DNA from: Myxococcaceae bacterium JPH2
Lineage (GTDB): Bacteria; Myxococcota; Myxococcia; Myxococcales; Myxococcaceae
NCBI GenBank assembly: GCA_016458225.1
Contig: JAEMGR010000001.1
Coordinates: forward strand, 620,001-684,000
Length of the DNA stretch: 64,000 bases
Reading direction: 5' to 3'
The position numbers were made by a program, and so were the translations under genes. Below, piece after piece: positions 53,317-62,484 of the stretch. Every line of letters begins with the position of its first letter. Position 1 is the first letter of the stretch. Under the pieces are notes generated by a model. That model did no database searches, was not told the DNA's origin, and saw only the letters and a program-made list of their open reading frames with translations.

Positions 53317-56316
53317 ATGTCCTCACCGCTCGTCCTGCGGCTTCCCGAGACTTCCCAAGTTGTTTTTGGACACACGGTGCTGAGCCAGCCGGAGTTGTTG
53401 CGGCGCGCGACGCTCATCGCCGAGCGGCTGCGTACGGACTTCGGCGTCGTGGCGGGAGACCGGGTGGGGTTGATGACCGTGCCAGGGCCAGACGTGGTGC
53501 CTGCCTTGCTCGGCATCTGGATGGCGGGGGCGGCCTACGTGCCGCTCGACCCCTTCCTCCCGGATGAGCGGTTGCTGCGCATCGTGCGCGACGCGGGCCT
53601 GCGAGGCATTGTCACGCAGCGCGAGCACCGCATCACCCTGGGCCTGCTGGAGAGCTGGTTGGGCGGGGCGCTGCCCTCGTTCGCGGTGGATGCGGAGGAG
53701 GAGTTCTCCCAGGCGCCCGCCCGCGCGCCCTCCGCGGACCTGGAGGTGCCGCCCGAGCGGCCCGCCTATCTCATCTACACCTCGGGCAGCACCGGCGAGC
53801 CCAAGGGCGTGGTCTGCACGTTCCGAGGCGTCCACAACCTCATCCAGGCCGCGCGCCCCATCATGGAGCTGGGCTCCGCGACACGTCATCTCCAGTTCGC
53901 GAGCATCAACTTCGACGCCTCGGTCTGGGAGCTGTTCCCCACCCTCTTCTGGGGTGGCACCGTGGTGCAGGGCAGCCGCGAGGAGCTGTTGCCTGGTCGC
54001 CGGCTGGCGCATGCGCTGCATCACCATCGGGTGACGCACGTGTGCTTGCCGCCCTCGGTGCTGGGGCAGCTCGGGCCGTTCGTGGACGCGCTGCCGGACC
54101 TCACCGACGTCATCATGGCGGGCGAGCGCTGCCCTCCGCCCCTGGCGGATCGCTGGCATGTCTCGGGGCGCCGCGTCTTCAACGCGTATGGCCCCACCGA
54201 GGCCACGGTGTGCGCGACGATGTACCGCGTGCGCGGAGACGAGGCGCCGGTGCCCATCGGGACCGCGCTGCCGGGCGTGCGCCTGCGCGTCATGGATGCC
54301 GAGGGCCAGGAGGTCGCCCCGGGCCAGACAGGGGAGCTGTGGATTGGAGGCGAGGGCGTGGCCGCGGGCTACCGCAACCAGCCGGAGAAGACGCGCGAGT
54401 CCTTCCCGCGCGATGCGGCGGGGGACGTCTGGTACCGGACGGGAGACGAGGTGGTGCACCGGGACGACGGCGAGCTCGTCTTCCTGGGGCGGATGGACCA
54501 CCAGGTGAAGCTGCGCGGGTTCCGCATCGAGTTGGAGGCCATCGAGCAGGCGCTGTACGCCTTCCCTGGCGTCGCGCAGGCGGCCGTGAAGGTGTTCGAG
54601 GAGACGGACGCCCAAGGGCAGGTCTCCGGGGAGCTGGTCGCCTACTACGCCGCCCATGAGGGTGTCGCCGTGTCGCGAGACGCGCTGCGGGCGCAGGTGG
54701 CCGCGGTGCTGCCGGACTACATGGTGCCGCACCACTTCCAGCCGCTGCCGCGCCTGCCGCTGATGCCCAACCTGGGCAAGGTGGACCGGCAGGCGCTGCC
54801 GCCGCCTCGGGACTGGAAGCGCGCCGACGCGGCCCGCCCCCACAGCACCGCCAGCACACCGCTGGACCGACTGTGCCGCGTGTTCGAGCAGACGCTGCGC
54901 GCGGCGCCGGGCACCATCACCGAGTCCACTCACTTCTTCCATGCCGGCGGAGACTCGCTGGGCGTGGCGCGCGTGCTGGCGCGCGTGGAGGAGGAGTTCG
55001 GCGTCTCGCTGCCCTCGCGGCAGCTCTACTCCCACCCCACGCCGGCCGCGCTGCTGCCCTTCTGCGCCACGGACGGCGGCGCGCTCCCCGAGCCCGACTC
55101 CGTGCGAGACACGCTGCTGGCGGACGCGGCCTCCGTGCCGACGCTCCAGCTCCATGCGCGGCCTCCCCAGGATGCGCGCCCGCCGCGCGCGGTGCTGCTC
55201 ACCGGGGCCACGGGCTTCCTGGGCATCCACCTGCTCGCGGCGCTGGCCTCGCGCGTGGAGCGCGTCTACTGCCTGGTGCGCGCCCGAGACACGGCGGAGG
55301 CCCAGGCCCGCGTGCGCGCCACGGCGGCCCGCTACGCCGTCACCCTGCCCTGGTGCGAGGACCGCATCCGCACGGTGCCGGGCGACATCACCCGCGAGTC
55401 CCTGGGCATGGAGCCGCTGCTGCATGACACGCTGGCGCGCGCCTGCGACGCGGTGGTGCACGCGGCGGCGAACATCAGCTACATCCTGCCGTACGCCGAC
55501 GCGGGGAGGCCCAACGTCGCGGGCACGCAGAACGTGCTCGCCTTCACCGCCTACGGCCGGCTCAAGGCGCTGCACCACGTGTCCTCGCTCAGCGTGTACG
55601 GCGCGCTGGGCACCCTGCGAGACCGGCAGGTGGTGCCCGAGGACTTCGACCTCGACGAGTCCCTGGACCTGATGCGCTACGAGAACGGCTACACCCGCGC
55701 CAAGTGGGTGGCGGAGCGGCTCGTCACGGCCGCGCGCGCGGCGGGGATGCCGGTGAGCCTCTACCGTCCCGGCTTCATCGAGGGCCACAGCCGCACGGGC
55801 ATCGGCAACGCGGATGACCTCCTGTGCCGGCTGCTGGTGGGCAACATCCAGATGGGCATCTACCCGGACTTCCCCCAGAAGTACTGGCTGCCCGTGCCAG
55901 TGGACTACGTGGCGACCGCCATGGCGCACCTCGTGGTGAATCAGCCACCGGGTGGCAATTACAACCTGGTGGCCGAGCGGAGCCAGGAGCCCTCGCACAA
56001 CGAAATCTTCGAGATGCTCGGCGGCAAGGGGCACCCGCTGTTCCGCGTGCAGCCACACGCGTGGCTGCGAGAACTCACGCGCCTGGGGCCGGACAACGCG
56101 CTGTTCCCCCTGGTGGGGTTCATGCGAGAGAAGGTCTACCACGGCACGCGAACCCTGCTGGAGCTGCACTACCGCTCCCCCATCGCCGACACGACGAACA
56201 CGCGCGCGGCGCTCGCGGGCAGCGGCATCCAGTGCCCGGATATCGACGAGGCCCTGCTGCGCCGCTACCGCACGCACCTGCTCCAGCGCCACCGCCACGC
56301 GGTCCGTGCAGCCTGA
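53317..56316 (+). CDS. Stand-alone adenylation-thiolation-reductase (A-T-R) NRPS-like enzyme
   Basis: 999 residues. Adenylation domain: A3 YTSGSTGEPKG (from residue 154), A4 FDASVWE (Asp200), A5 NAYGPTEATVCAT, A7 YRTGD, A8 GRMDHQVKLRGFRIE, A10 GKVDRQ. Carrier domain: FFHAGGDSLGV with the phosphopantetheine Ser547. Terminal thioester reductase: TGATGFLG from 629, catalytic Tyr792 and Lys796 in YTRAK. Such enzymes activate an amino or carboxylic acid, tether it, and release the aldehyde or alcohol with NAD(P)H. By alignment to GrsA the pocket residues read D-A-W-C-I-A-A-V-C-K, 8 of 10 identical to the phenylalanine code. No condensation domain, MbtH protein or transporter next to it. AGGA precedes the ATG. 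Confidence 0.93.
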   Translation: MSSPLVLRLPETSQVVFGHTVLSQPELLRRATLIAERLRTDFGVVAGDRVGLMTVPGPDVVPALLGIWMAGAAYVPLDPFLPDERLLRIVRDAGLRGIVTQREHRITLGLLESWLGGALPSFAVDAEEEFSQAPARAPSADLEVPPERPAYLIYTSGSTGEPKGVVCTFRGVHNLIQAARPIMELGSATRHLQFASINFDASVWELFPTLFWGGTVVQGSREELLPGRRLAHALHHHRVTHVCLPPSVLGQLGPFVDALPDLTDVIMAGERCPPPLADRWHVSGRRVFNAYGPTEATVCATMYRVRGDEAPVPIGTALPGVRLRVMDAEGQEVAPGQTGELWIGGEGVAAGYRNQPEKTRESFPRDAAGDVWYRTGDEVVHRDDGELVFLGRMDHQVKLRGFRIELEAIEQALYAFPGVAQAAVKVFEETDAQGQVSGELVAYYAAHEGVAVSRDALRAQVAAVLPDYMVPHHFQPLPRLPLMPNLGKVDRQALPPPRDWKRADAARPHSTASTPLDRLCRVFEQTLRAAPGTITESTHFFHAGGDSLGVARVLARVEEEFGVSLPSRQLYSHPTPAALLPFCATDGGALPEPDSVRDTLLADAASVPTLQLHARPPQDARPPRAVLLTGATGFLGIHLLAALASRVERVYCLVRARDTAEAQARVRATAARYAVTLPWCEDRIRTVPGDITRESLGMEPLLHDTLARACDAVVHAAANISYILPYADAGRPNVAGTQNVLAFTAYGRLKALHHVSSLSVYGALGTLRDRQVVPEDFDLDESLDLMRYENGYTRAKWVAERLVTAARAAGMPVSLYRPGFIEGHSRTGIGNADDLLCRLLVGNIQMGIYPDFPQKYWLPVPVDYVATAMAHLVVNQPPGGNYNLVAERSQEPSHNEIFEMLGGKGHPLFRVQPHAWLRELTRLGPDNALFPLVGFMREKVYHGTRTLLELHYRSPIADTTNTRAALAGSGIQCPDIDEALLRRYRTHLLQRHRHAVRAA

Positions 56317-56343
56317 GACCGCGTCGTATTAGAAGGCCCCCGT

Positions 56344-56718
56344 ATGCCGTCCACCTCGCCCCGACGTCGTGAGCCGCAGGCGCCACCGCGCACGTGGTGG
56401 CAACAGGCCCTGGACTTCCTGGAGCTGTCCAACCCCGAGGGCCTCAAGGGCTTTCTCCTCGTGGTGGGCCTGCTCGTCGTCGGGTTCGGGCCGCTCCTGC
56501 TGCTCGCGGTGTTGGACGTGAGCGGGCCCCTGCGCAAGGCGCTCGTCGCCCTGGGGCCCGTGTCCATCTGTCTGGGATTCGCGGGCCTCGTCCTGGTGTG
56601 TGGCTACCGGTACGGCGCGGCGCTCAAGTGGTCGCGCCGCCAGACGTGGGGGCTCGCCGCGCTGTTCGCGGGCCTGGGCGTGCTGGGCGGCCTGGGCCTG
56701 TGGTTCAGCGAGACCTGA
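56344..56718 (+). CDS. Small membrane protein, family not recognised
   Basis: 124 residues. Basic N-terminus (RRREPQAPPRTWWQQAL), then three hydrophobic helices (about residues 36-58, 65-87 and 101-120) and a short tail. No known motif. It starts 27 bases after the A-T-R gene on the same strand, so it may be co-transcribed. Its place suggests, but does not show, a role in handling or exporting that enzyme's product. Followed by a shared terminator. Confidence 0.7.
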   Translation: MPSTSPRRREPQAPPRTWWQQALDFLELSNPEGLKGFLLVVGLLVVGFGPLLLLAVLDVSGPLRKALVALGPVSICLGFAGLVLVCGYRYGAALKWSRRQTWGLAALFAGLGVLGGLGLWFSET

Positions 56719-56775: not shown

Positions 56776-57852
56776 TCAGCCCTGCTCCGCGCCCTCGAAG
56801 ACCACCTTCGCCTTGTTCATGACGTGCTCGACCGCGAGCAGGTACCAGCCCATCTCGGTCAGGCGCTTGGTCGTCTCCGGGGTCTCACGCAGGGCGGCGT
56901 GCACGTCCGCCGCGGTGAGGCCGAAGGGCTCCGTGGAGTCGCGGATCAACTGCTCCAGCTTCTCCGGAGTGAGCTGCAGCTTCTCGGCCTCGGTGACGGC
57001 CTTCAGCGCGATGCCAATGTGCAGTCCGCGCTCGGCGTCCGCGCGCGTGGTGGGGTCGGTGAGCCAGCCGCGGAGCGCCTCTTGCTGCTCCTCGACGTCG
57101 AACTGGTACGCGACCATGGCCTGGCCCTCGGCCTGGACCCAGCGGCGACGCAGCTCCTCGTCCACCAGCGCCGGGGACAGCTCCACCGGAGCGCGCCGAG
57201 CCACCTCGTCCAGCACCATGTCCTGGGCCTGCACCCAGAGCTGCGCCGCGAGCTCGTCCTCCATCTCCTCGCGGAGCTGGTTCATCACCTCATCCAGGCT
57301 GCTGCCCATGTCGAGCTTGGTGAGGAACTCGGACGAGGTCTCCGGCAGCATCGTCACCTGGTGCGCGCCGAGGATGTCCACGAGGAAGCGCGCGGGCTTC
57401 CCCTGGAGTGACTCCACGGGATAGTCGTCCGGCAGCACGAGGGCGATCTGCATCGACTCGCCCACCTTGCCCCCTTCCGCGACGCCCTCGCAGAACCCGG
57501 GCAGCGCCTCGATGGGCGCCAGCTCCGTGCGCATTCCGAAGCGCGCGGAGAACGGGATGAGCGTCCCGTCACAGTAGCCCACGATGTTGAGCTGCACGTC
57601 GTCGCCCAGCTCCAGCGACTCGCCCGCCTGACGCTCGCGCGTGGTGGCCACGGCCCGGCGCTTCTCGTGGAAGCTGCGCAGGAGGTCTTCCTCGGTCAGG
57701 TCGTCCGGAGCGGGAACCCGCACGGCGAGCCCATCCAGGGACGGGGCTTTCACACTGGGGAGCTTGAGGGCTTCGGCGGAGGCGGAACTCACCACCGGGC
57801 TCATCTTGAGAAGGCGCTCGACACCCCGACCTGATGATTGCTTGCTGCTCAC
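56776..57852 (-). CDS. Trigger-factor-like peptidyl-prolyl isomerase/chaperone lacking the ribosome-binding domain
   Basis: 358 residues from a GTG with GGGAG upstream (an in-frame ATG at 57804 would drop 16). After a ~60-residue N-terminal part (PSVKAPSLDGLAVRVPAPDDL) comes an FKBP-type domain as in trigger factor: QLNIVGYCDGTLIPFSA, PIEALPGFCEGVAEGGKVGES, DDYPVESLQGKPARF. The helical C-terminal chaperone arms follow (SSEFLTKLDMGSSLDEVMNQLREEM, ELSPALVDEELRRRW). The ribosome-docking GFRxGKxP loop is absent, so it is not the housekeeping Tig. It may chaperone a specific client, perhaps the neighbouring upstream gene product. Confidence 0.85.
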   Translation of the reverse strand: MSSKQSSGRGVERLLKMSPVVSSASAEALKLPSVKAPSLDGLAVRVPAPDDLTEEDLLRSFHEKRRAVATTRERQAGESLELGDDVQLNIVGYCDGTLIPFSARFGMRTELAPIEALPGFCEGVAEGGKVGESMQIALVLPDDYPVESLQGKPARFLVDILGAHQVTMLPETSSEFLTKLDMGSSLDEVMNQLREEMEDELAAQLWVQAQDMVLDEVARRAPVELSPALVDEELRRRWVQAEGQAMVAYQFDVEEQQEALRGWLTDPTTRADAERGLHIGIALKAVTEAEKLQLTPEKLEQLIRDSTEPFGLTAADVHAALRETPETTKRLTEMGWYLLAVEHVMNKAKVVFEGAEQG

Positions 57853-57973
57853 GAATGCTCCCGGGAGATAGGCGTGCCAGCGCCCGCGCCAATGGGGAAC
57901 AAAGCGACGGCTCGGCATGGACCAAAGGCTTAGTCCAGCCGAGCCGCTCTGACAAACGACGAAGGGGTGCGGC

Positions 57974-59017
57974 TTACTTGAAGAAGGCGCCCACGATGCT
58001 GGACACCGTGGAGACCGCGGCGCCGACCTGGCTGACCACCGGGATGTTGGTGGCCGCGGCGATGGAGCCCACCGCGGTGATGACCGACGTCACCTTCTTG
58101 CCCACACCCGCGTTCTTGTCCATCAGCGTCGCGCCCGCGTTGGCCACGTCGACGGCCGCGATGGCCACGTTGACGCCCGGAGCGAACCGGCCCAGCGCCT
58201 TGGCGGCGGTGCCAGCGGCGGCCTTCGCGCCAGCCTTGACCGCGACCTCACCGGCCTCCTTGCCCACCGCGGAGAGCGCGGCCTTGGCGGCCGAGCGCGT
58301 GCCGCTGCCCAGGATGCCCTTGGCCAGGGAGCTGCCCGCCTTCGCGGCGTCGCCCGCGGCGGTGCTGATGGCGCGGCCCACGGTCTTCGCCGTGCCGGAC
58401 TCGAAGATGCCCTTGGTCGCCGCGCCCTTCACGGCCTTGAGCACATCCTCGCTGGCGTGCGGCAGGGCCTTCTTGAAGGTGTCGAGCGCCTTCTTCCCGG
58501 CGTCGAGCTTCCCCTTCATGATGTTGCCGCCCAGGATGCCGCCCATCACCTTGCCGCCGACGATGCCGCCCGTCGTGGCCGTGATGCCCGCCTTGGCCGC
58601 GTCCATGGTCGAGCGGGTGGCCGCGAGGATGTCGTCCTTGCTGCCCGTGCGGATGGCCTGACGGATGTCCTTGAACGCCGTGGCGCCCGCCATCGCCGCG
58701 CCGGGGATGCCCGCGTAGCGCATGGCCGCGTTCAGCTTCGCGCCGAACTTGGTGACGCCCTTGAACGTGCCCTCGGCGAACGTCGGGTTCCGGACGAAGT
58801 CCAGGTTCGTCTTCCCCAGCAGCCCCTCAGCGCCCTGCTTGAGGTTCTTGATCTGCTGGAACGCGTCCTTGCTGAAGGTGAAGCCCTTCACGCTCTGGCT
58901 GGCGACGGCGACGCCGCCCTTGATGAGTTCCTTGTTCTCCGACAGCGTCTTCTCGACGGTCTTCTGAACGTTGGTGCGGACGGTGTTGAAGGTCTTCTTG
59001 ATGTCGGGGAAACCCAT
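57974..59017 (-). CDS. Ala/Gly-rich hydrophobic protein, unknown function (membrane-active or secreted candidate)
   Basis: 347 residues; ATG 59017 preceded by GAGG. The N-terminal ~60 residues are charged and helical (GFPDIKKTFNTVRTNVQKTVEKTLSENKEL). The rest is dominated by Ala, Gly, Lys and Thr with repeated small-residue stretches (AAMRYAGIPGAAMAGATAF, TTGGIVGGKVMGGILGG with glycine-zipper spacing, AAKAGAKAAAGTAAKALG). The C-terminus is a hydrophobic hairpin-like segment (FAPGVNVAIAAVDVANAGATL and VITAVGSIAAATNIPVVSQVGAAVSTVSSIVGAFF). No Cys. This resembles pore-forming or membrane-inserting effector proteins, but no family is recognised. It is upstream of the trigger-factor-like gene (121-base gap), same strand. 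Confidence 0.75.
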   Translation of the reverse strand: MGFPDIKKTFNTVRTNVQKTVEKTLSENKELIKGGVAVASQSVKGFTFSKDAFQQIKNLKQGAEGLLGKTNLDFVRNPTFAEGTFKGVTKFGAKLNAAMRYAGIPGAAMAGATAFKDIRQAIRTGSKDDILAATRSTMDAAKAGITATTGGIVGGKVMGGILGGNIMKGKLDAGKKALDTFKKALPHASEDVLKAVKGAATKGIFESGTAKTVGRAISTAAGDAAKAGSSLAKGILGSGTRSAAKAALSAVGKEAGEVAVKAGAKAAAGTAAKALGRFAPGVNVAIAAVDVANAGATLMDKNAGVGKKVTSVITAVGSIAAATNIPVVSQVGAAVSTVSSIVGAFFK

Positions 59018-59173
59018 GGGGGGCCTCGCGAATTGGCAGAATGGATGGAACTTGCCTGGATTCTCGTCCCCGAATTCTGAGAGTTGCTTAGGGATTCTCA
59101 AGGCACATTGGCTGAACGCGTCATCCCCACACTCCTGGAGCCACTTGTTGAGGGCTCAACAAATCGAGTGCGG

Positions 59174-60682: not shown

Positions 60683-61384
60683 TCAGCGGGAGCGCAGCAC
60701 CACGCCGTCAGGGCCCGCCACCACCACGTCCGTGGCCAGCCCCAGGAACAAGCCATGCGCCAGGATTCCCGCGCGCGACTCCAACCGCGCGGCGAGCTGC
60801 GCGGGCTGCTCGATGGGCCCGAAGGCGCAGTCCAGCACGGCGTTCCCCTGGTCGGTGAGGAAGGGCACGCCGTCCACGCTCACGCGCGGCACGACCTTCG
60901 CGCCCAGGGATTCGAGGAAGCGCGCCTCCACGCGCAGCGCCATGGGCAGCACCTCCACGGGCACCCGGGCGTGCGTGCCGAGACGCGGCGAGAGCTTGGC
61001 CGCATCCACCACGATGACCTCGCGGCGACTGGCCTGCGCGACCACCTTCTCGCGCAGCATGGCTCCGCCCGCGCCCTTGATGAGCGACAGGTCCGGGGCC
61101 ACCTCGTCCGCTCCGTCGAGGGTGAGGTCCACCTCGGGCCTCGCCTCCAGCGTGGTGAGCGGCACGCCCAGCTCGCGAGCCAGTCGCTCCGTCTCGACGG
61201 ACGTCGGCACGCCCATCACGTCGAGCAGGCGTCCCTCGGCGCGCAGCACCGCCAGCCGGCGCACCGCGAACGCGGCGGTGCTGCCCGTGCCCAGCCCCAC
61301 CACCATCCCCGGCTGGATGAGCTCCACGGCCCGCTCGGCGGCCTCGCGCTTGAAACGGGACGTGGCGCTCACGTCGAAGGTCAT
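60683..61384 (-). CDS. rpiA: Ribose-5-phosphate isomerase A
   Basis: 233 residues. RpiA motifs: VGLGTGSTAAFAVRRL for phosphate binding, LDGADEVAPDL with catalytic Asp, IKGAGGAMLREKVVA with Lys and Glu, and VNGVPF-like VDGVPFLTDQGN near the C-terminus. Interconverts ribose 5-phosphate and ribulose 5-phosphate in the non-oxidative pentose phosphate pathway. The ATG overlaps the stop of tal (ATGA), so rpiA is translated with transaldolase. Length normal. Confidence 0.96.
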   Translation of the reverse strand: MTFDVSATSRFKREAAERAVELIQPGMVVGLGTGSTAAFAVRRLAVLRAEGRLLDVMGVPTSVETERLARELGVPLTTLEARPEVDLTLDGADEVAPDLSLIKGAGGAMLREKVVAQASRREVIVVDAAKLSPRLGTHARVPVEVLPMALRVEARFLESLGAKVVPRVSVDGVPFLTDQGNAVLDCAFGPIEQPAQLAARLESRAGILAHGLFLGLATDVVVAGPDGVVLRSR

Positions 61385-62484
61385 GCGGGCGCTCCGGTGT
61401 CCAAGTGGGAAGGCAGCGCGTCCATCTTCTGCGCGATGCACTCCATCAGCCGGTCCCAGGATGCCACGAACGCCTCCGCTCCCTCGCGCTGGAGTTGGTC
61501 CGCCAGCGCGTCCACGTCCACCCCATCCGCGGCGAACGCGGCCAGCACCGCCTCCGCGTCTCCGCCATCCCTCGGCATCGGCTGCCCCACCCGGCCGTGC
61601 TCGGCGAAGGCCTTCAGCGTGGGCTCCGGCAGCGTGTTGATGGTGAAGGGCGCGGCGAGCGCCTCCACGTACAGCGTGTCTCGCGCCGCCGGGTCCTTGG
61701 TGCCCGTGCTGGCCCACAAGAGCTGCTGCATGCGCCCGCCTTTGTTCACCAGTCGACGCATCGACTCGCTCTCGCGCAGCGCCGTGTAGGCGCGGTAGAC
61801 GCGCCCCGCCATGGCGATGCCCAGCCGATTGCGCAGCGCGGGCGTCACCTTCTTCTCCACCGCGCGATCCCACCGACTGATGAACAGCGACGCCACCGAG
61901 GGCACATCCGGCGAGCGCCCCGCCGCGATCCTCCGCTCGATGCCCAGCCGGTACGCGTCCGCGGCGGCCAGGTACTGCTTGGCGGAGAAGAGGAGCGTCA
62001 CGTTGATGGGCACGCCCGCGAAGGTCGCGTCCTCGATGGCGCGCATGCCCTGCGGCGTGCCCGGAATCTTGATGAAGAGGTTGGGCAGGCCCGCCAGCGC
62101 ATGCAGCCGCACGGCCTGCTCCACCGTCCGCGCCGAGTCGTAGGCCAGGAGCGGCGAGACCTCGAGCGATACCCAGCCATCCCGCCCGCCCGTCGCCTCG
62201 TGGATGGGCCGGAACAACTCGGCCGCGCGCGTGAGGTCCTCCAGCGCCAGCGGGAAGAAGGCCGCCTCACCCGTGCGCCCTTGGTCGCGCTGCTCCAGGA
62301 TGGCGGCGTCGTAGGCATTCCCCTGCCGGATGGCCAGGTCGAAGATGCTCGGATTCGAGGTCAGTCCGCTGATGCCATACGCCTCGGCGTAGCGTGCGAG
62401 CGTCCCCTCGTCGAGCAACCCGCGGGTGATGTTGTCCAGCCAGAGGCTCTGGCCCATCTCACGAAGAATCTGGGTGGCGAGCAT
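61381..62484 (-). CDS. tal: Transaldolase
   Basis: 367 residues, matching the longer Tal type (about 360-370). AAGGAGGGGG directly upstream of ATG 62484 gives a near-ideal ribosome site. Features: SLWLDNITRGLLDEG and GISGLTSNPSIF at the N-terminus, WVSLEVSPLLAYD, Schiff-base Lys in NLFIKIPGT, NVTLLFS, and SLFISRWDRAVE. Transfers dihydroxyacetone units between sugar phosphates. First gene of the tal-rpiA operon; the pair also supplies erythrose 4-phosphate, a substrate of AroF. Confidence 0.96.
   Translation of the reverse strand: MLATQILREMGQSLWLDNITRGLLDEGTLARYAEAYGISGLTSNPSIFDLAIRQGNAYDAAILEQRDQGRTGEAAFFPLALEDLTRAAELFRPIHEATGGRDGWVSLEVSPLLAYDSARTVEQAVRLHALAGLPNLFIKIPGTPQGMRAIEDATFAGVPINVTLLFSAKQYLAAADAYRLGIERRIAAGRSPDVPSVASLFISRWDRAVEKKVTPALRNRLGIAMAGRVYRAYTALRESESMRRLVNKGGRMQQLLWASTGTKDPAARDTLYVEALAAPFTINTLPEPTLKAFAEHGRVGQPMPRDGGDAEAVLAAFAADGVDVDALADQLQREGAEAFVASWDRLMECIAQKMDALPSHLDTGAPA

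What the first reader, a model, noticed from the sequence alone, without database searches (positions are those of the whole stretch)
53317..56718. Single-module A-T-R enzyme with a phenylalanine-like pocket and no condensation partner
Seen: one complete adenylation, carrier and reductase domain set and a three-helix membrane protein just downstream, with no condensation, thioesterase, MbtH or tailoring gene nearby. By-eye alignment to GrsA gives pocket residues D-A-W-C-I-A-A-V-C-K against D-A-W-T-I-A-A-I-C-K for phenylalanine. Known: stand-alone A-T-R enzymes release amino aldehydes or alcohols, and amino aldehydes can dimerise to pyrazines. Inference: the natural product is an aromatic amino aldehyde, alcohol, or a 2,5-disubstituted pyrazine, possibly not yet described for this lineage.
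Basis: partly seen in the sequence, partly recalled or inferred. Interest (0 to 1): 0.68.

Follow-up and report, generated by a model that had tools for sequence, protein, structure and literature searches.

The report
Solo Phe A-T-R enzyme, likely dibenzylpyrazine synthase
A single bacterial enzyme that probably turns phenylalanine into a reactive aldehyde, two of which join by themselves into the small molecule dibenzylpyrazine; the chemistry is known from another bacterium, but this looks like the unassigned gene behind a compound already seen in Corallococcus myxobacteria.

Summary
Window 53317-56316 (+) encodes a 999-aa stand-alone adenylation-carrier-reductase enzyme with pocket DAWCIAAVC plus the A10 lysine (GrsA: DAWTIAAIC). 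No condensation domain lies in the window. The genome is a Citreicoccus (Myxococcaceae). Intact orthologs occur in both Citreicoccus genomes and 12 of 16 Corallococcus genomes, at one conserved site, with pocket and catalytic motifs unchanged (only I299/V varies). Four Corallococcus genomes have a clean empty site. The downstream membrane protein is not a partner. In six ATR-carrying genomes scanned, the only full thioester reductase domains are MxcG (myxochelin) and this one. Published work shows that a Phe A-T-R enzyme in Xenorhabdus (ATRed) makes a phenylalanine-derived pyrazine, and that dibenzylpyrazine is a dominant metabolite of 21 screened Corallococcus strains. Best explanation: Phe -> phenylalaninal -> spontaneous dimerisation and oxidation -> 2,5-dibenzylpyrazine. 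This would supply the missing gene for a known Corallococcus compound and predicts it in Citreicoccus. It is a new member of a known kind. The suggestion that the product is undescribed for this lineage is not supported for its closest relatives. The product assignment is inferred, not shown.

The parts
53317..56316 (+). Stand-alone A-T-R (ATRed-type) enzyme, 999 aa; proposed dibenzylpyrazine / phenylalaninal synthase
53344..54798 (+). Adenylation domain; pocket DAWCIAAVC, A10 lysine in PNLGKVDR (54766-54789)
54865..55053 (+). Carrier (T) domain; phosphopantetheine site HAGGDSL at 54940-54960
55192..56286 (+). Thioester reductase domain; TGATGFLG nucleotide-binding motif at 55201, HHVSSLSV at 55573, NGYTRAKW (Tyr/Lys) at 55684; nearest solved relative MxaA R domain (4u7w/4w4t)
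56344..56718 (+). 124-aa hydrophobic protein 27 bases downstream; NOT part of the system (unlinked in relatives, present in ATR-less genomes)

Best explanation
A single-gene pathway. The A domain activates L-phenylalanine with ATP and loads it on the carrier domain. [quoted passage not shown] Two molecules condense without an enzyme to a dihydropyrazine, which oxidises to 2,5-dibenzylpyrazine. Citreicoccus and most Corallococcus share the gene at one locus, and it accounts for the dibenzylpyrazine reported from Corallococcus. Shown here: architecture, pocket, intact motifs, conservation, synteny, and that it is the only A-T-R candidate in the genomes scanned. Inferred: substrate, two-electron release, dimerisation, product.
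For: A-T-R architecture. Pocket DAWCIAAVC in Citreicoccus and DAWCVAAVC in every Corallococcus ortholog read, at about 70% overall identity. All A, T and R catalytic motifs invariant in 13 orthologs. dN/dS 0.10 in the Citreicoccus pair and 0.20-0.33 within Corallococcus. Each of six ATR-carrying genomes scanned has only two reductase domains over the TIGR01746 cut-off, MxcG and this enzyme, and the ATR-less G031 has only MxcG. No co-conserved neighbour gene, as expected for a one-gene pathway. Precedent: Xenorhabdus indica ATRed, expressed alone in E. coli, gives a pyrazine proposed to form from two phenylalanine-derived aldehydes (PMC7586950). Dibenzylpyrazine is one of three dominant peaks in extracts of 21 Corallococcus strains (PMC6164225).
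Against: No biochemical data exist for this enzyme. Pocket codes do not separate Phe cleanly from other aromatic substrates, and the exact code was not found in the papers searched. The nearest solved R domain, MxaA, belongs to an assembly line ending in an amino alcohol (general knowledge), so four-electron release to phenylalaninol is possible. The Corallococcus report is an unpublished-data remark in a review and does not link strains to genotypes. The Citreicoccus inhibens paper passages read describe pyrrolnitrin, not dibenzylpyrazine.
Confidence: 0.7

Rival explanations
1. The reductase carries out four-electron reduction and the main product is phenylalaninol, an amino alcohol, with pyrazine only a by-product of aldehyde leakage.
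For: Closest solved relative of the R domain is MxaA, E 9e-57; MxcG and MxaA-type R domains in the same family release alcohols (general knowledge).
Against: Stand-alone Phe ATRed in Xenorhabdus gives pyrazine and Corallococcus extracts hold dibenzylpyrazine.
Confidence: 0.15
2. The enzyme prefers another aromatic amino acid (Tyr, Trp or a modified Phe) and the product is a different aryl pyrazine.
For: Position 278 is Cys rather than Thr and position 330 Val rather than Ile against GrsA; Xenorhabdus ATRed also takes Trp and Tyr in small amounts.
Against: All other pocket positions match the Phe code, and dibenzylpyrazine is the compound seen in the genus that carries the ortholog.
Confidence: 0.1

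Closest known systems
ATRed of Xenorhabdus indica (xind01729, Tietze et al. 2020, PMC7586950)
   Same: Monomodular A-T-R, Phe proposed as substrate, no condensation domain, works alone.
   Different: Its sequence could not be fetched, so homology was not tested. The two stand-alone A-T-R enzymes found in 394 genomes of the order of Pseudocitrobacter are only 32% identical, carry DAFFLGV-type pockets and group with other myxobacterial solo A-T-Rs, not with this one.
MxcG (myxochelin synthetase), present in the same genome
   Same: Terminal A-T-R of the same general build, 37% identical; top NCBIfam hit.
   Different: MxcG has a condensation domain and pocket DAEDIGTVV; this protein scores 533 bits against a cut-off of 2300.
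MxaA-type C-A-T-R proteins of Myxococcus
   Same: MxaA is the nearest solved reductase domain (4u7w/4w4t).
   Different: C-A-T-R-sized proteins with DLFNNALTY-type pocket; separate branch in the tree.
Other solo A-T-R proteins of Myxococcaceae (G028, G092, G094, G098)
   Same: Same layout, about 1040-1170-aa open frames.
   Different: 33-38% identity, other pockets (DAFLLGLTV, DMHSIGAIY, DVWFFGYIF, DASDVGVIC, DIYTVGGIY), different branches.
Carboxylic acid reductases (CAR)
   Same: A-T-R logic.
   Different: Only 174 bits against a cut-off of 1300 (NF041592); the A domain here is the amino-acid type (TIGR01733, 377 bits over a 317 cut-off).

Membership tests
ATRed-type minimal NRPS (aminoaldehyde / pyrazine synthase) | Single A-T-R module with no C or TE domain | tested here: met
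ATRed-type minimal NRPS (aminoaldehyde / pyrazine synthase) | Amino-acid-type A domain with an aromatic pocket | tested here: met
   DAWCIAAVC plus lysine against GrsA; TIGR01733 over cut-off
ATRed-type minimal NRPS (aminoaldehyde / pyrazine synthase) | Intact carrier serine and reductase nucleotide-binding and Tyr/Lys motifs | tested here: met
   GGDSL, TGATGFLG, NGYTRAKW invariant in 13 orthologs
ATRed-type minimal NRPS (aminoaldehyde / pyrazine synthase) | Two-electron release giving a pyrazine in vivo | not testable with these tools
   needs expression and LC-MS; indirect support only
Xenorhabdus ATRed orthology | Common descent as an A-T-R unit | not tested
   X. indica sequence not obtained; the two enterobacterial A-T-Rs found fall in another branch
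MxcG | NF038078 equivalog cut-off and C-A-T-R layout | tested here: not met
   533 bits against 2300, no C domain
Carboxylic acid reductase | NF041592 equivalog cut-off | tested here: not met
   174 bits against 1300

The most novel reading that the evidence does not exclude
A separately evolved Phe A-T-R lineage, confined to Citreicoccus and Corallococcus, whose product (phenylalaninal or dibenzylpyrazine) serves as a signal or predation chemical, so that natural presence/absence among Corallococcus species marks a chemical polymorphism.
Probability: 0.2. Interest if true: 0.55.

Novelty: new member of a known kind. Interest (0 to 1): 0.36.

Why it matters
It proposes a gene for dibenzylpyrazine, a dominant metabolite of Corallococcus for which the papers searched here name no gene. 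It predicts the compound in Citreicoccus, and it provides a natural control: related species with a clean empty site that should not make it. One deletion or one E. coli expression would settle it.

Tried and rejected
Membrane protein as exporter or partner: rejected, because in relatives it lies on other contigs or far from the enzyme and occurs in genomes without the enzyme. MxcG, CAR and condensation-line membership: rejected. Direct comparison with X. indica ATRed through genomes of the order of Pseudocitrobacter: the search found no close relative of this enzyme in 394 sampled genomes, so homology is untested. Literature search for the exact pocket code: no hit for DAWCIAAVC or DAWCVAAVC. 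The 991-aa reverse-strand ORF under the gene (53323-56298) is taken as a GC-rich shadow frame. The first codon analysis put one ortholog, L036, on the wrong strand; the motif alignment was redone, and the dN/dS pairs quoted do not use L036.

Full report
What is there. The frame at 53317-56316 (+) encodes 999 aa with an adenylation domain (AMP-binding 10-352, AMP-binding_C 409-483), a carrier domain (517-579) and a thioester reductase domain (about 626-990), scored above Pfam and NCBIfam domain cut-offs. Its best full-length model, MxcG, scores 533 bits against a cut-off of 2300, so it is not MxcG. Against the GrsA segment checked against 1AMU, the pocket reads DAWCIAAVC, with the A10 lysine in PNLGKVDR. 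As a check of method, the same script reads MxcG as DAEDIGTVV and MxaA-like proteins as DLFNNALTY-type, which from general knowledge are lysine and alanine codes.

Surroundings. No condensation domain lies in the window. Neighbours are housekeeping-like: DUF418, M4 peptidase, quinone oxidoreductase and AlkZ-like glycosylase upstream; downstream a small hydrophobic protein, a trigger-factor C-domain protein, an Exo_endo_phos protein, RpiA and transaldolase. In Corallococcus the enzyme sits between the same quinone oxidoreductase and Exo_endo_phos genes, without the hydrophobic protein, AlkZ and trigger-factor genes. The hydrophobic protein occurs in 35 of 96 family genomes, including many without the enzyme, and in Corallococcus it lies elsewhere. 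It is not a partner.

Distribution. The window's genome is close to Citreicoccus inhibens M34, whose ortholog is 96% identical. Of 96 family genomes, 14 carry an ortholog: both Citreicoccus and 12 of 16 in the Corallococcus genus group (genus names inferred from the matching named contigs). Four genomes of that group (G031, G075, G078, G082) lack it and have a gap of about 555 bases between the two flanking genes. About 440 bases of that gap match the ATR-bearing locus at 86-87%, and no remnant of the enzyme was found beyond short matches of the kind expected by chance in GC-rich DNA. A Pyxidicoccus contig holds an N-terminal fragment that matches only the first 152 residues, apparently a decayed or truncated copy. 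Catalytic motifs are invariant in 13 orthologs; the only pocket change is I299/V. dN/dS is 0.10 for the Citreicoccus pair and 0.20-0.33 within Corallococcus. In a tree of 18 A-T-R proteins this group is one fully supported branch with a long stem, apart from other solo A-T-Rs; deeper joins are uncertain because of long branches.

Only candidate. In the seven genomes scanned, the reductase profile finds two domains over cut-off in each of the six that carry the enzyme, MxcG and this one, and one (MxcG) in G031, which lacks it. No other stand-alone A-T-R candidate was seen in them.

Link to chemistry. Tietze et al. (PMC7586950) showed that a solo A-T-R enzyme from Xenorhabdus indica yields a pyrazine when expressed alone in E. 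coli, proposed to form from two phenylalanine-derived aldehydes. [quoted passage not shown] Joining these, the enzyme is most likely the dibenzylpyrazine synthase of Corallococcus, and Citreicoccus should make the same compound. This link is inference: strains and genotypes are not matched, and the review reports unpublished data.

Limits. Substrate, two-electron release and product are not measured. Four-electron release to phenylalaninol, or a different aromatic substrate, remain possible. The genome-contig scan used patterns from this protein and would miss distant A-T-Rs. A passage on Citreicoccus inhibens M34 lists complete biosynthetic clusters with none on scaffold 4, but the gene is near a contig end there, so its absence from a list of complete clusters says little.

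Noticed in passing
L023:5354-5824: Pyxidicoccus caerfyrddinensis contig with a fragment matching only the first 152 residues of the enzyme (62%), followed by unrelated reading; looks like a decayed or truncated copy.
   Followed up: partly
L110, L111, L112, L113, L114, L116: Other solo A-T-R proteins in Myxococcaceae with different pockets (DAFLLGLTV, DAFLLGVTI, DMHSIGAIY, DVWFFGYIF, DASDVGVIC, DIYTVGGIY); four of them group with two enterobacterial A-T-Rs (DAFFLGV-type).
   Followed up: partly
window 56776-59101 (-): Trigger-factor C-domain protein and a 375-aa protein without Pfam match lie between the enzyme and the Exo_endo_phos gene in Citreicoccus but not at this site in Corallococcus.
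   Followed up: no
window 60686-62484 (-): Ribose 5-phosphate isomerase A and transaldolase genes overlap slightly.
   Followed up: no
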